Notes under the pieces: model-generated
Told to the model about the DNA's origin: nothing
Seen by the model: only the letters and a program-made list of their open reading frames with translations
Database searches by the model: none
NCBI GenBank assembly: GCA_002067365.1
Contig: MVRK01000023.1
Coordinates: forward strand, 1 to 61,450
DNA: 61,450 bases
Reading direction: 5' to 3'
Source: Methanosaeta sp. PtaU1.Bin060
GTDB taxonomy: Archaea > Halobacteriota > Methanosarcinia > Methanotrichales > Methanotrichaceae
In this document: positions 29,996-51,342 of the stretch, piece by piece
Position numbering within the stretch: the first letter of the stretch is position 1
Layout: each line of letters begins with the position of its first letter
Translations under genes and position numbers: made by a program

Positions 29996-30712
29996 TCACC
30001 AGGTCACAGAGGGGAGCGAGAAAGATTCATCCTGCTTCATCACAGCCGCCAAGACCTCTTCAGGCCTCCCAAGCCCAGTCAGCCTTCCTTCCCGAATCAC
30101 AGCGACCCTGTCGGCCAGTCTATGGCACTGCTGCATATTGTGAGTTGCCATGATAACTGTTGTCTTGCGCGAGAGATCGTGAATGAGGCGATCTATCGAG
30201 GCGGCGCTCTTCGGGTCCAGGTTCGCAGTCGGCTCGTCCAGGAGGAGGAGCTCAGGCTCCAGAACCAGTGCTCTCGCGAGGGCCGTCCTCTGCATCTCGC
30301 CTCCTGAGAGGGTGCTGGCGATGCGAGAGCCGAAAGAATCCAGGCCCACTGCCCTCAGGCTCTCATCAACCTTTCTCGGATCACCCATTTTGCGGACATT
30401 GAGGCCGAAGGAGATGTTCTCGCGCACGCTTCCCTTGAACATCACCGGCTTTTGAAAGACCATCGCCATCCTGCGGCGTGCTCGAATCTTCTCCTTCTCA
30501 GGAAGAGCGGTGATATTCACTCCGTCGAAGATCACACTTCCCTCGCTTGGCTCATCAAGGAGGTTTATCAGGCGAAGGAGGGTGGTCTTTCCCGAGCCCG
30601 TCGGGCCTATCAGGGCCAGGACATCGCCCCTCTCTACGCTCAGGCTTATGTCCTTGAGGATCTGCGCCTGGCCGTAGGCCTTTCCCAGCTCCCTCGTCTC
30701 CAAAAACGTCAT
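29996..30712 (-). CDS. tupC: Tungstate/molybdate-type ABC transporter ATP-binding protein
   Basis: 238 residues with Walker A GPTGSGKTTLLRL, Q-loop VFQKPVMFKG, signature LSGGEMQR, Walker B LLLLDEPTANLD and switch His in ATHN. It belongs with the TupA/TupB genes upstream and powers oxyanion uptake. ATG 30712 is chosen because GGTGATGAG directly precedes it and ABC domains begin at MTFLETRELGK; the in-frame GTG at 30745 would add a Cys-containing leader. Confidence 0.9.
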   Translation of the reverse strand: MTFLETRELGKAYGQAQILKDISLSVERGDVLALIGPTGSGKTTLLRLINLLDEPSEGSVIFDGVNITALPEKEKIRARRRMAMVFQKPVMFKGSVRENISFGLNVRKMGDPRKVDESLRAVGLDSFGSRIASTLSGGEMQRTALARALVLEPELLLLDEPTANLDPKSAASIDRLIHDLSRKTTVIMATHNMQQCHRLADRVAVIREGRLTGLGRPEEVLAAVMKQDESFSLPSVTW

Positions 30713-30762
30713 CTCATCACCGTCCGCGCTGCAGCCACAGTGCAATTATACCTCTCTGCAGC

Positions 30763-31449
30763 TCACCATCCCTGGACCTTTCCCAGCACCAGGTTGATCG
30801 CCAGCGAGAGGGTTATAAGTATTATTCCAAGGGCCATCGAGAGCTCCAGGTCTCCCATGGAGGTATTGAGTGCGATGGCTGTGGTGAGGACGCGGGTGTA
30901 GCCCTGGATGTTCCCTCCGACCATCATGGCCACGCCCACCTCCGAGAGGGCTCTTCCGAATCCGAGAAGCACAGCAGCCATCACAGCAGGCCTTGCCTCT
31001 TTTATCACTGTCAATATCACCTGAGCCTCGCTCGCCCCAAGGGACTTCGCGGTCTCCTTGATCTGCGGGCTCACGCCTGCGAGGGCCGAGATGGTGAGCC
31101 CTGTCATGACTGGGCTGACGAGGATCGTCTGGCCTATGATCATGCCTGCAGGCGAGAAAAGAAGGTGTAGGCCTCCAAGGGGCCCAGAGCGCGAGATGAG
31201 CAGGAAGACCAGAAGGCCTACTGTCACTGTGGGAAGGCCGTATAGCGTCTGGATCAGGTTGACAATAGCCCTCTTGCCCCAAAAACTACGAAACTCGATG
31301 AAACCGCCCAGGGGTATGCATATCAGGGCAGCCAGAAAAGCAGAGGTGAGGGAGATAAAGAGGGATCTGGCTGTGATCTCCACCACCACGGGATCAAGTC
31401 TCGCTATCAGCTCGACTGCCTTGAGAAGCCCATTCCAGATCTCTTCCAA
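30763..31449 (-). CDS. tupB: Tungstate/molybdate-type ABC transporter permease
   Basis: 228 residues with about five membrane helices. It shows RSLFISLTSAFLAALICIPLGGFIEF and the permease EAA-like loop ETAKSLGASEAQVILTVIKEARPAVMAA, where the ATPase docks. FGRALSEVGVAMMVGGNIQGYTRVLTTAIAL is typical of tungstate/molybdate permeases of the TupB type. Middle gene of tupABC. Confidence 0.9.
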   Translation of the reverse strand: MEEIWNGLLKAVELIARLDPVVVEITARSLFISLTSAFLAALICIPLGGFIEFRSFWGKRAIVNLIQTLYGLPTVTVGLLVFLLISRSGPLGGLHLLFSPAGMIIGQTILVSPVMTGLTISALAGVSPQIKETAKSLGASEAQVILTVIKEARPAVMAAVLLGFGRALSEVGVAMMVGGNIQGYTRVLTTAIALNTSMGDLELSMALGIILITLSLAINLVLGKVQGW

Positions 31450-31496
31450 CAGCCCTCACCGCTGGCTTCCTTTGCAGCTAAATCGATTGTATCTTC

Positions 31497-32429
31497 TCAG
31501 GCCTCTGCACAGGTGGCGCTGGCCGAAACAGCGCACTCAGCGGGCGGGCAGCCAATGGCGGCGCAGTTGCCCTTGGCCGGGAAGAATATCTGTTGGCCGA
31601 ACTTCTCTGCTCCATAATCCGCGATCAGCTTCTGGCCCTCATCGGATACGAGGAAGTTTATGAAGTTTGTGGCCATCTCGCAGTTCACCCCAGGGCGCTT
31701 CATCGGGCTCACGGCGATAGCTGTGTAGACATTTAGAAGCTCGTTTCCTCCCTCGATCAGGGGGACTAGGGTGAAGTTGCCCTTGTATTGCGCATTGTAG
31801 GCCATGAAGGTGGACATGTCGCTCAGAGTGTAGGCGCTCTTCTCATTGGCCATCATGAGCGTCGCTCCCATGCCCTGGCCCGCGGAGATGTACCAGCGGT
31901 CCGAGGCATTGAATTTCGAGATATTGTAGCCCGCTGCCTTCCAGAGGTTTTTCTCCTTGGTGTAGGTTCCAGAGTTGTCTCCCCTCGACACGAACATGAC
32001 CTTCTCAGGGTCTGTCCTTCCCTCCTCCAGGATCTTCTTGAAAGCCTGGGTGGCGTTCAGCCCCTTGACGCTCGCGGGGTCTCCTCTTGGTCCCACAACG
32101 TAGAAGTAGTTGTAGGCGATGCATCTCCTCTCAAGCCCGTTGCCGCTACCAACGAACTTCAGCTCAGCATCTTTGTCGTGTACCAGGAGGACATCAGCGT
32201 CTCCCGTCTCGCCGAGCTTGATGGCCGCTCCGGACCCAACGGCGATGACATCCAGGGAAACATTGTACTTCTCCTCGAACTTCTGCTTAACCACATCCAG
32301 GAGCCCTGTATCATGAAGGCTGGTCGTCGTAGCCAGCCTCAGCCTTTCGCCGTCTGATGCCATCGCAGCAGTGCATAAGACAGCCAGCGCCATGAGCATC
32401 ATCGAGATCTTGAGGATATAGCCCCCCAT
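31497..32429 (-). CDS. tupA: Extracytoplasmic tungstate-binding protein, TupA type
   Basis: 310 residues with a signal peptide (ILKISMMLMALAVLCTAAMA). The ligand-site motif LRLATTTSLHDTGLLDVV and the later VSRGDNSGTYTKEKNLW are the TupA signatures for tungstate/molybdate capture. The C-terminal ~25 residues form an extra Cys-rich tail (four Cys) not usual in the family. ATG 32429 is preferred over GTG 32438 because it directly precedes the signal peptide. It leads the tupABC-tfx operon. Confidence 0.9.
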   Translation of the reverse strand: MGGYILKISMMLMALAVLCTAAMASDGERLRLATTTSLHDTGLLDVVKQKFEEKYNVSLDVIAVGSGAAIKLGETGDADVLLVHDKDAELKFVGSGNGLERRCIAYNYFYVVGPRGDPASVKGLNATQAFKKILEEGRTDPEKVMFVSRGDNSGTYTKEKNLWKAAGYNISKFNASDRWYISAGQGMGATLMMANEKSAYTLSDMSTFMAYNAQYKGNFTLVPLIEGGNELLNVYTAIAVSPMKRPGVNCEMATNFINFLVSDEGQKLIADYGAEKFGQQIFFPAKGNCAAIGCPPAECAVSASATCAEA

Positions 32430-32459
32430 ATCTATCACGATCTTAAATAAACAAGCTTA

Positions 32460-47876: not shown

Positions 47877-47894
47877 TGATATGTGTTCGAAATT

Positions 47895-47910
47895 TTCCGA
47901 ACGATCGGAA
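47895..47910. promoter_or_regulatory. Palindromic operator between RND exporter and regulator
   Basis: TTCCGA-ACGA-TCGGAA is a perfect inverted repeat, flanked by further TTCG/CGAA half-sites (TGTTCGAA at 47884-47891 and ACGAAAAG at 47914-47921). It sits between the exporter start and the regulator start, 13 bp before the regulator's likely TATA (ACTTAAAACTT, 47923-47933). Confidence 0.55.
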
Positions 47911-47951
47911 CATACGAAAAGTACTTAAAACTTGTGGTCTACTCTAGATCG

Positions 47952-48458
47952 ATGAACAAAGCTGAAAGGGACGCCTTGAAGCGACATATTGTGGACGCCT
48001 GCGTCAAGGGGGCGAACTCCAGGGGTTATGGAGATGCTGTAGGCGTTTTGCGAGGGACACTATTCCTTGCGATCAGGCCCATGTCCATGGATCAGCTTGT
48101 GGAGGAGACGGGGTACAGCAAATCCACTGTCAGCTTCAACATGAGCATTCTGGAGAACCTCGGGCTTGCCAGAAGAGTGATCACGCCTGGAGATAAGAGG
48201 TATCACTATCTTGCCGTGACAGATCATAATTCTATGAAAAAAGCCATGCTCGTGAATGTGAAAAATGAGAACCAGCTCATCATGACCGCCTTGGATATGA
48301 CCGAGAAGGATCTCGTCGGCAAATCAGTCTCCCAGGCAATCCTCGATAAGATCTCTGATGTGAGATCCTTCTACAGGAAGACTGACAGGTTGCTTGAGCT
48401 TGTCTCCAGGTACACCACAGACGAGATGATAGAGCTCTTGGAGAGAGAGGGCAGATGA
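47952..48458 (+). CDS. GbsR/MarR-like winged-helix transcriptional regulator
   Basis: 168 residues. The winged helix ~40-100 (GTLFLAIRPMSMDQLVEETGYSKSTVSFNMSILENLGLARRVITPGDKRYHY) matches the GbsR branch of MarR-like proteins, with a C-terminal dimerisation helix. ATG 47952 is chosen because the TATA element (47923-47933) would put the transcript start at about the ATG, making a leaderless mRNA; an upstream ATG at 47883 lies inside the operator. It probably represses the exporter and itself. Confidence 0.85.
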   Translation: MNKAERDALKRHIVDACVKGANSRGYGDAVGVLRGTLFLAIRPMSMDQLVEETGYSKSTVSFNMSILENLGLARRVITPGDKRYHYLAVTDHNSMKKAMLVNVKNENQLIMTALDMTEKDLVGKSVSQAILDKISDVRSFYRKTDRLLELVSRYTTDEMIELLEREGR

Positions 48459-48598
48459 GATCTCAAAGGCCGATGCAGTCGTGCTTCTTGTCAGCACCAA
48501 TTTTTCTTTAAATCTAAATCGGACTCCATAGGAGGTCCAATTCGATAGGACATTAAAATGACCAAATCTTTATTAGGTCTGACAGCTAATAATAATTA

Positions 48599-50467
48599 AT
48601 GATGAAAAGCGGAGGCTATCTTGTTATATCTCTTATGATGCTATCAGTAGCAGCATCGCATGCTGAAATAGCTGTTTCTGGCTCAACCACAGTTCAACCT
48701 CTAGCAAAGATATGGGCTTCTGAATTTGATGAGCTACAGCAGAATTATCATATATCAGTTCAAGGCGGCGGCTCAGAGAAGGGCATAATCTACATTGTTG
48801 AAAATAGATCAGATATGGACATGGTCTCAAGGAAATTCAACTCGGACGAAAATTATGAATCAGGCCCGGAGCTGAGCCGCGTTAATCTAACGGCATCCGA
48901 GATGTTCCGATTGGATCTTCGAAATACAAGCCTGGAAATGGCAGATCTGAGCAGATCATCTCTTGGCGAGGCTTGCATTAAAAATGCACGGCTGTTTGGG
49001 GCCAACCTCAGCCGGGCGGTCATGGAGGGAGCTGATCTTGAGGGGGCTTATCTGGTGGGCTGCGATCTATCCTTTGCAGATCTCAGCCATGCCAATCTGG
49101 TAGGAGCTGACCTGATCGGCTCAAACCTCACCGGCGTGGATCTCACTGGTGCAAATCTGCAACAGGCGAGGATGAGCAATACCACTCTTGTGAGAGCAAA
49201 GATGGATCTGACAAACTCAACTGCTGCTGACCTCAGCCGCTCAGATCTGACGGGAGCATCCCTTGTCGGGGCTTACTTGAGGAGGGCAGCATTTTGCGAT
49301 TCGATCTTGGCAGGAGCGGATATGAGCGGAGCAGACCTCGTCGGCGCCAATCTCATCGATGCCAACCTGAGCGATTCGAAGCTCAACGGAGCCGATGTAT
49401 CCGAGACTCGCTGCTACGGCGCGAATTTCGTCGGATCCGAGATCATCAATTCTGAAATGGGCTTTGCCAATTTAACATCTGCCAATCTGAGCATGGCCAA
49501 TCTCTCTGCCTCGAATCTCATGGCTTCAGAGCTGACAGGTTCTGATCTCTCTGGGGCCGACCTATCGGCTGCGAATCTTGAGGCTGCTTATCTGCATAAG
49601 ACGAAGGTCGTCGATGCCCGGCTAGTCGATGCCAGTTTGTCTGGGGCACACTTTGAGGATTCCGATCTATCGAATTGCGATCTCGGAGGAGCCGATCTGA
49701 CTGGCGCCCTGCTTGAAGGGTGCAACCTGACGGGTGCCAATCTGAATGATGCCAGGCTTTTAAGCTCGGATCTCAGCCAAGCCCTCCTGAAAGGAGTGCA
49801 CCTGGCCAGGGCAAATATGGTTGGTGCCACGATGAATTGGATAGAGATTGGCGAAAGCAGCATCACAAATTCCCAGTTGACCAGAGCAGAGCTCTTTGGC
49901 GCTAACCTGAGCCATTCTGATCTGACGGGCTCGGACTTCACAAGGGCGTATTTGGTGAGGGCGAACCTATCGAATTGCACTCTGGATGATGTCACCCTTG
50001 ATTTCGCAGACCTGAGCAATGCAAACCTGCAAAATGCCAATCTCGGCCAGGCCAGGCTATCTAGCCTCATAATGAATGATGCGGACCTATCAGGAGCGGA
50101 CTTGAGGGGATCTCACATGGATAGCATGACCCTTGAGGGAACTATTTGGCGAAGGGCAAACTTGAGGTCCTCCAGAATAATCTCCTTGGACATGGAGAAT
50201 ACCGACTTCAGCGGAGCCGATTTGAGGAACGTCCGGTTCGCCAAGACTTATCTGAATAATACGAACTTTTCGGGCGCTGATCTGAGAGGTGCCATCTTTG
50301 AGACATGCGCCTTCGAGAACGCCGATTTCAGTGGTGCAGATCTACGAGGAGTCAAGTATGATTCTGTAGCGCTCGGCTTTTTCGCCATCTCGAAGCTCGA
50401 TGGGGCTGGGATCAGTGCAGGCCTGATGGATGATCTTGAAAAACTTCGGTCAGGAAAAATGACCTAA
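48599..50467 (+). CDS. Secreted protein: PstS-like N-terminal segment fused to long pentapeptide-repeat domain
   Basis: 622 residues with a signal peptide (LVISLMMLSVAASHA). Residues ~23-83 match the beginning of phosphate-binding PstS proteins: IAVSGSTTVQPLAKIWASEF, ISVQGGGSEKGI and DMDMVSRKFNSDE. The rest of PstS is missing. From ~95 to ~590 runs a pentapeptide-repeat series A-[D/N]-L-x-x (for example GADLIGSNLTGVDLTGANL), which folds as a square beta-helix in known members. TATA-like TCTTTATTAGG lies about 30 bp before the ATG, so the leader is short. Function is unknown; the phosphate-site loops GSTT and GGGS are kept. Confidence 0.85.
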   Translation: MMKSGGYLVISLMMLSVAASHAEIAVSGSTTVQPLAKIWASEFDELQQNYHISVQGGGSEKGIIYIVENRSDMDMVSRKFNSDENYESGPELSRVNLTASEMFRLDLRNTSLEMADLSRSSLGEACIKNARLFGANLSRAVMEGADLEGAYLVGCDLSFADLSHANLVGADLIGSNLTGVDLTGANLQQARMSNTTLVRAKMDLTNSTAADLSRSDLTGASLVGAYLRRAAFCDSILAGADMSGADLVGANLIDANLSDSKLNGADVSETRCYGANFVGSEIINSEMGFANLTSANLSMANLSASNLMASELTGSDLSGADLSAANLEAAYLHKTKVVDARLVDASLSGAHFEDSDLSNCDLGGADLTGALLEGCNLTGANLNDARLLSSDLSQALLKGVHLARANMVGATMNWIEIGESSITNSQLTRAELFGANLSHSDLTGSDFTRAYLVRANLSNCTLDDVTLDFADLSNANLQNANLGQARLSSLIMNDADLSGADLRGSHMDSMTLEGTIWRRANLRSSRIISLDMENTDFSGADLRNVRFAKTYLNNTNFSGADLRGAIFETCAFENADFSGADLRGVKYDSVALGFFAISKLDGAGISAGLMDDLEKLRSGKMT

Positions 50468-50601
50468 AGCCATAGTCGCATCTGAGTCCCTCATCCCTCT
50501 TATCGCATCGATATCTCTCAGAAGGTTTATGAGGCCCATGCGAAGAAGTCTTGGTGCAGTGATCTGCAGTGCGGCAGGCCCCGGCTTTCTGGAGAATTAA
50601 T

Positions 50602-51342
50602 ATGAAGATAGCTTTCCTTGGCACCAACGGCTGGTACGACACAGAGACGGGCAACACCATCTGCACCCTCATCAGCTCCGAGAAGCACCACATCCTCCTC
50701 GACGCTGGCAACGGCATCTACAAGGCAGACAGATTCATCCAGGACGAGCGGCCCGTCCACCTCTTCCTCTCCCACTTCCACCTGGACCACATCGAGGGCC
50801 TGCACATCATCAACAAGTTCCGCTTTCCATCTCTGCAGATCTATGGCCAGAAGGGCACAAAGGCGGTCCTGAAGACCATCGTCAACGAGCCCTTTACTGT
50901 TCCCCTGGACAGGCTCCCCTTCCCCGTCGATGTGCACGAGCTTTTCGAGGGGCCTTACAAGCTTCCCTTCCCCGTGGAGTGCCGCTTCCTGGTTCACGCC
51001 TCTCCGACGCTCGGCTACCGCTTTGACCTGGACGGCAATGTAATTGCCTACTGCCCAGACACAGGCATCTGCGAGAACGCTGTGCGCCTTGCAGAGGATG
51101 CAGACCTGCTCATCACAGAGTGCTCCCACAAGCCCGGGGAGAGAAGCCCTATGTGGCCCCATCTGAACCCGCAGGACGCAGTCGAGATCGCCAGGAGAGC
51201 CCGAGCGAAGCGGCTGGCTCTGACCCATTTCGATGCGGGAAGGTACACGAGCATCCAGGAGCGCCTGGACGCTGCCAAGACAGTCGCAGACTTCAAAGAG
51301 CTGATCGTGGCCCAGGATGGCATGGTCCTGGAGCTGGAATAG
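50602..51342 (+). CDS. Metallo-beta-lactamase-fold hydrolase
   Basis: 246 residues: KIAFLGTNGWYDTETGNTICTLI, HLFLSHFHLDHIEGL (HxHxDH-type zinc site), VAYCPDTGIC-like IAYCPDTG, LLITECSHKPGE and LALTHFDAGRYTS. This is the RNase Z/arylsulfatase-like group of the fold; the substrate is not identifiable. ATG 50602 is chosen because MKIAFLG is the homologous start and GGAGA lies 6-7 bp upstream. Confidence 0.9.
   Translation: MKIAFLGTNGWYDTETGNTICTLISSEKHHILLDAGNGIYKADRFIQDERPVHLFLSHFHLDHIEGLHIINKFRFPSLQIYGQKGTKAVLKTIVNEPFTVPLDRLPFPVDVHELFEGPYKLPFPVECRFLVHASPTLGYRFDLDGNVIAYCPDTGICENAVRLAEDADLLITECSHKPGERSPMWPHLNPQDAVEIARRARAKRLALTHFDAGRYTSIQERLDAAKTVADFKELIVAQDGMVLELE

What the first reader, a model, noticed from the sequence alone, without database searches (positions are those of the whole stretch)
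48599..50467. Chimera of the start of PstS and a long pentapeptide-repeat solenoid
The first ~60 mature residues are a recognisable PstS N-terminus, with GSTT and GGGS phosphate-contact loops, and then the protein turns into about 100 pentapeptide repeats. It is exported. I know of no described protein with this architecture; it may bind a phosphate-containing surface ligand, or the PstS part may be a relic from recombination.
Basis: partly seen in the sequence, partly recalled or inferred. Interest (0 to 1): 0.65.

Follow-up and report, generated by a model that had tools for sequence, protein, structure and literature searches.

The report
Secreted pentapeptide solenoid with PstS remnant
A methane-producing archaeon of the genus Methanothrix carries a secreted rod-shaped repeat protein whose front end is the leftover quarter of a phosphate-binding protein; a relative still has the complete phosphate-binding head on the same rod, so this is a shortened version of an apparently undescribed family in which a binding domain is joined to a long repeat rod.

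Summary
ORF 48599-50467 (+, 622 aa) has a signal-peptide-like N-terminus, a true PstS start (residues 20-85; PF12849, 32.9 bits, E 7e-8, only profile positions 8-73 of 267) and about 100 uninterrupted pentapeptides (98 of 100 centres in one register). Neither refutation test was met: the profile search succeeds and the fusion exists elsewhere. Another Methanothrix genome (G023, CABMDX010000334) encodes a complete PstS domain (111 bits) on a 61-63% identical solenoid. A third (G006, RPOO01000047) has a decayed PstS start with different deletion limits. In most relatives the same solenoid carries another solute-binding head, ABC_sub_bind (34 of 37 PF04392 matches in the family). At a conserved cluster, G023 and G006 have PstS where G012 and G015 have ABC_sub_bind. 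The window gene is best read as a PstS-solenoid fusion that lost about 200 aa of PstS in frame. It lacks loops needed to bind phosphate and probably works as a secreted rod with a vestigial leader. The family seems undescribed in the literature I could search; this member is a reduced one.

The parts
48599..50467 (+). Complete ORF, 622 aa: leader, PstS remnant, pentapeptide solenoid
48599..48664 (+). Signal-peptide-like N-terminus (residues 1-22)
   Evidence: By inspection of the sequence; G023 and G006 homologues also start with a hydrophobic leader
48656..48853 (+). PstS/PBP_like_2 remnant, residues 20-85; contains the GSTT and GGGS loops, lacks the rest of both lobes
   Evidence: PF12849 positions 8-73 of 267; 62% identity to the head of the complete G023 fusion
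48854..48874 (+). Deletion junction: about 200 residues present in G023 (alignment columns 108-312) are missing here
   Evidence: Alignment A1
48869..50368 (+). About 100 pentapeptides (about 25 coils) of right-handed quadrilateral beta-helix
   Evidence: PF00805 E 4e-98; register count; model mostly pLDDT 80-95 from about residue 110 on; Foldseek to HetL and other solved pentapeptide proteins
50360..50464 (+). C-terminal cap: two short helices (residues 589-596 and 607-617), conserved end (LEKLRSGK)
   Evidence: Model m9f4581a8e133 and alignment A1
48558..48599 (+). 13-codon upstream ORF whose TAA overlaps the ATG of the gene (TAATG); significance unknown
47883..48458 (+). Neighbour: MarR/ArsR-like regulator, divergent from an MMPL-type transporter gene; the pair is conserved in the genus but is followed by this gene only here
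50590..51342 (+). Neighbour: metallo-beta-lactamase-fold protein, at other loci in relatives

Best explanation
The gene descends from a secreted fusion of a complete PstS-type phosphate-binding head with a long pentapeptide solenoid, as still found in Methanothrix genome G023. In this lineage an in-frame deletion removed about 200 residues, so only the export leader and the first beta-alpha-beta portion of PstS remain. Shown: the homology of both parts, the complete fusion in a relative, a second reduced copy with different deletion limits, and an intact reading frame. Inferred: that the protein is exported and acts as a rigid rod of about 12 nm (about 25 coils) in the cell envelope or sheath, as a scaffold or binding surface, with the PstS stub as a vestigial leader or N-cap that no longer binds phosphate.
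For: G023 encodes a complete PstS (PF12849 111.1 bits, positions 3-262 of 267) plus solenoid in one 832-residue frame. The window head is 62% identical to that head, against at most about 52% for the stand-alone PstS proteins compared and 39-42% for those of its own genome. It shares motifs with it (IWASEF, GGGSE.GI, VEN.S, SRK.NSD). Solenoids are 61-63% identical. G006 has the same architecture with a decayed head (9 of 36 conserved PstS columns kept, against 24 in the window and 23 in G023) and other deletion limits, so loss of the PstS core happened independently or was extended differently. In G023 and G006 the PstS fusion sits in the same gene order (PRP, small secreted protein, fusion, BMP-type gene) as the ABC_sub_bind fusion of G012 and G015. 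Rough solenoid dN/dS is 0.17-0.18, so the rod looks constrained.
Against: The three PstS-type solenoids do not form a supported clade: in the C-terminal third the window groups with an ABC_sub_bind-type solenoid of G014 (98/97), so the gene is partly mosaic. The window fragment has not decayed (24 of 36 conserved columns kept, rough dN/dS 0.22), which suggests a recent deletion or some remaining constraint. Export, location and function of the rod are inferred. Only one genome shows the complete fusion.
Confidence: 0.8

Rival explanations
1. Leader capture: a solenoid gene acquired only the first 90 codons of a PstS gene by recombination, and never had a complete PstS head.
For: The same kind of event appears next door in G006, where a BMP-type gene keeps only its leader and first residues and continues into TPR repeats. 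Solenoid segments of this family recombine.
Against: The fragment is nearest to the head of an existing complete fusion (62%), well above the other PstS proteins compared. G006 keeps the PstS C-terminal end and linker, which leader capture would not leave.
Confidence: 0.13
2. The PstS stub is functional: it folds as an N-cap or ligand-binding patch and is kept by selection.
For: It keeps conserved PstS columns as well as the complete G023 head does; rough dN/dS is 0.22 against G023.
Against: The remaining loops are only part of a PstS site and the SGTR loop is missing. The G006 counterpart has decayed. The model gives pLDDT below 50 for residues 1-89, although this is weak evidence because the complete PstS of G023 also scores below 50 with a 3-sequence alignment.
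Confidence: 0.1
3. Assembly or binning artefact joining two genes.
For: The genome is a fragmented assembly (136 contigs) and read data could not be examined.
Against: The frame is intact over 622 codons well inside a 61-kb contig. Two independent assemblies carry the same order of head and solenoid.
Confidence: 0.02

Closest known systems
PstS / phosphate-binding proteins (PF12849 PBP_like_2; e.g. 4q8r, 4gd5, 1twy, E. coli 1ixh)
   Same: Residues 20-85 are homologous to the N-terminal beta-alpha-beta part with the GST and GGGS loops; the G023 head aligns over its whole length.
   Different: The window protein keeps only 66 of 267 profile positions, so there is no complete site, and no pst genes are nearby.
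Pentapeptide-repeat proteins (PF00805; HetL 3du1, QnrB1, MfpA)
   Same: Repeat sequence and predicted right-handed quadrilateral beta-helix.
   Different: Much longer (about 100 repeats) and with an export leader; the solved pentapeptide proteins it matches are about 180-240 residues long.
ABC_sub_bind (PF04392) + solenoid fusions of the same archaeal family (e.g. G015:C27, G012:C49, G000:C58)
   Same: Homologous solenoid (46-66% identical), solute-binding head with leader, same gene neighbourhood as the PstS-type fusions of G023 and G006.
   Different: The head is from another solute-binding family and is complete; the window protein has a truncated PstS head and lies at a different locus.
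Archaeal sheath (SH) proteins of Methanothrix (PMC11576556)
   Same: Methanothrix cells are enclosed in a sheath; its SH proteins are exported beta-rich proteins with variable added domains.
   Different: SH proteins have an amyloid-like core of two beta-sheets; that paper does not mention pentapeptide proteins.

Membership tests
PstS phosphate-binding protein | Significant profile match to PF12849 | tested here: met
   32.9 bits, cut-off 27
PstS phosphate-binding protein | Complete two-lobe PBP domain | tested here: not met
   Only positions 8-73 of 267; one matched stretch
PstS phosphate-binding protein | SGTR-type phosphate-contact loop | tested here: not met
   REPGSGTRNVF of G023 falls in the deleted stretch
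PstS phosphate-binding protein | Linked pst transport genes | tested here: not met
   Neighbours are a MarR/ArsR-like regulator and a metallo-beta-lactamase-fold gene; the genome's stand-alone PstS genes lie on contigs C35 and C60
PstS phosphate-binding protein | Phosphate binding | not testable with these tools
   Needs purified protein
Pentapeptide-repeat protein | Tandem A(D/N)LXX pentapeptides | tested here: met
   PF00805 E 4e-98; 98 of 100 centres in register
Pentapeptide-repeat protein | Right-handed quadrilateral beta-helix | tested here: met
   Predicted model with regular 5-residue strand period; Foldseek matches to HetL and Qnr; prediction only
Qnr/MfpA-type gyrase-protecting proteins | Short cytosolic DNA-mimic without leader | tested here: not met
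   622 aa with a leader; solved matches of this type are about 180-240 aa
Methanothrix head+solenoid fusion family | Homologous solenoid with matching C-terminal cap | tested here: met
   54-66% identical to the best solenoid of a dozen genomes
Methanothrix head+solenoid fusion family | Complete solute-binding head | tested here: not met
   Head reduced to about 66 residues

The most novel reading that the evidence does not exclude
Methanothrix and relatives use a modular family of secreted proteins in which interchangeable solute-binding heads (ABC_sub_bind, PstS) are mounted on long pentapeptide rods, without a linked permease, to capture or sense ligands within the cell envelope or sheath; heads are swapped at a fixed locus and can be lost, leaving a bare rod as in the window.
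Probability: 0.4. Interest if true: 0.6.

Novelty: new variant of a known kind. Interest (0 to 1): 0.42.

Why it matters
The window protein by itself is a reduced member. It leads to a family in which solute-binding proteins, normally partners of ABC transporters, are permanently joined to a rigid repeat rod, in a major acetate-using methanogen whose cell surface is poorly understood. Most of the detected ABC_sub_bind domains of these archaea occur in this form. Complete, decayed and freshly truncated PstS heads in three related genomes give a readable series of how domains are swapped and lost.

Tried and rejected
(1) Recent supply of the PstS piece by this genome's own PstS genes: rejected, 39-42% identity against 62% to the G023 head. 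(2) A second complete PstS-solenoid in G021 (908-aa frame): rejected on reading; the frame holds another N-terminal domain, PstS and a non-solenoid C-terminus. G032 and G048 long frames: rejected, ordinary PstS with the frame extended upstream or read through a stop. (3) A single clade of PstS-type solenoids: not supported; segments give different trees. (4) Using the low pLDDT of residues 1-89 as proof of disorder: rejected, because the complete PstS of G023 scores as low with the same shallow alignment. (5) The PBP_like_2 gene in the window at 31497-32438 as source: by its neighbours it looks like a tungstate-type (TupA) gene, not PstS (my reading). (6) Literature on pentapeptide proteins in Methanothrix/Methanosaeta or on PstS-pentapeptide fusions: no relevant paper in the searchable library. 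(7) Plasmid collection: no match. (8) An empty insertion site: the MMPL-MarR pair is conserved but what follows differs, so the exact insertion could not be defined.

Full report
Observation. The ORF at 48599-50467 is real, uninterrupted and as described. Pfam gives PF12849 PBP_like_2 for residues 20-85 (32.9 bits, E 7e-8, profile positions 8-73 of 267) and PF00805 pentapeptide repeats with E 4e-98 for the remainder. Solved phosphate-binding proteins match the first 97 residues. The repeats run in one register: 98 of 100 pentapeptide centres are hydrophobic. The mature protein is about 63.5 kDa with pI 4.5. The leader is judged by eye.

The same fusion elsewhere. In 26 genomes of the genus, G023 has a single open frame (832 residues from its ATG) with a complete PstS (PF12849 111.1 bits, positions 3-262; PDB matches over the whole domain) followed by a solenoid 61-63% identical to the window's. 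G006 has the order leader, decayed PstS start, solenoid (634-aa frame). A search of named genomes found the same two: CABMDX010000334.1 (uncultured archaeon LFW-151_2, identical to G023) and RPOO01000047.1 (Methanothrix sp. bin.308, the G006 contig). No other complete PstS-solenoid was seen among 50 genomes of the family (the G021 candidate was rejected).

Deletion. Against G023 the window lacks about 200 residues (alignment columns 108-312). G006 lacks columns 75 to about 282 and keeps the PstS end and linker that the window lost. The two deletions therefore have different limits: they are independent, or a shared smaller deletion was extended differently. The window stub keeps 24 of 36 conserved PstS columns, G023 23, G006 9. 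Rough pairwise dN/dS for window-G023 is 0.22 in the stub and 0.18 in the solenoid; dS is near saturation, so these are only indications. The G006 stub has decayed, so the stub seems dispensable there; the window deletion looks more recent, or its stub retains some role.

Source of the head. The window stub is 62% identical to the G023 head, at most about 52% to the stand-alone PstS proteins compared and 39-42% to the two PstS of its own genome.

The family. In 50 genomes of the archaeal family, PF04392 ABC_sub_bind has 37 matches, of which 34 lie in open frames that also hold a homologue of this solenoid (frames and contigs compared by hand). So the usual head is ABC_sub_bind and PstS is a rare alternative. 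G000 itself has an ABC_sub_bind fusion on C58 (918-aa frame). In G012 the order is PRP, small secreted protein, ABC_sub_bind fusion, BMP-type protein, PRP; G015 has small protein, ABC_sub_bind fusion, BMP-family protein (PF02608), PRP. In G006 it is PRP, small protein, PstS-stub fusion, BMP-leader gene; in G023 PRP, broken small gene, PstS fusion, BMP-family protein. The head thus appears to have been swapped at a fixed position. The window copy is elsewhere, after a MarR-like regulator whose pairing with an MMPL gene is conserved in the genus; the solenoid gene follows it only here.

Trees. The solenoid tree is poorly resolved within the main group, and different thirds give different neighbours: in the C-terminal third the window groups with an ABC_sub_bind-type protein of G014 (98/97), while G006 and G023 pair weakly in the first third (86/82). 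Recombination among solenoids is likely.

Structure. AlphaFold2 gives a confident solenoid with a two-helix C-terminal cap, and nothing confident for residues 1-89. The complete PstS of G023 also scores below 50, so this does not decide whether the stub folds. Foldseek against PDB returns designed and natural pentapeptide solenoids, including HetL and Qnr proteins.

Mechanism. The best-supported account is a secreted rod that lost its ligand-binding head. Phosphate binding by the stub is unlikely because only part of the contact loops remain and the SGTR loop is deleted. The place and partners of the rod are unknown; the sheath or S-layer space is a reasonable guess because Methanothrix lives inside a sheath (PMC11576556), but nothing here shows it.

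Novelty. Both modules are known families. The combination, with swappable heads, was not found in the papers I could search; most subscription papers are not in that library. I rate the window protein as a new variant of a known kind: a reduced member of an apparently undescribed fusion family.

Noticed in passing
L049:11884-12756 (+), G006 contig C61: The gene after the decayed PstS-solenoid keeps the leader and first residues of a BMP-family protein and then turns into TPR repeats: a second solute-binding protein reduced to its leader in the same cluster.
   Followed up: partly
L046:4391-4890 (-), G023 contig C334: The small secreted protein gene between PRP and fusion is broken by stops and frameshifts in G023, while intact in G006 and G015.
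   Followed up: partly
L045:866-3589 (-), G021 contig C159: A 908-aa frame joins a transglutaminase-like N-terminal domain (by eye), a PstS domain and an unknown C-terminus: another unusual PstS fusion.
   Followed up: no
whole genus: Pentapeptide-repeat content varies greatly between species of the genus, from 0 matches (G004, G005; incomplete genomes) to 153 (G006), against 0-3 in the other families of the class that were searched.
   Followed up: no
window 48558-48599 (+): A 13-codon ORF ends with a stop overlapping the start codon of the gene (TAATG); possible coupling or chance.
   Followed up: no
window 29996-32438 (-): PBP_like_2 gene followed by permease and ATPase genes, which look like a tungstate-type (Tup) ABC transporter.
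   Followed up: no
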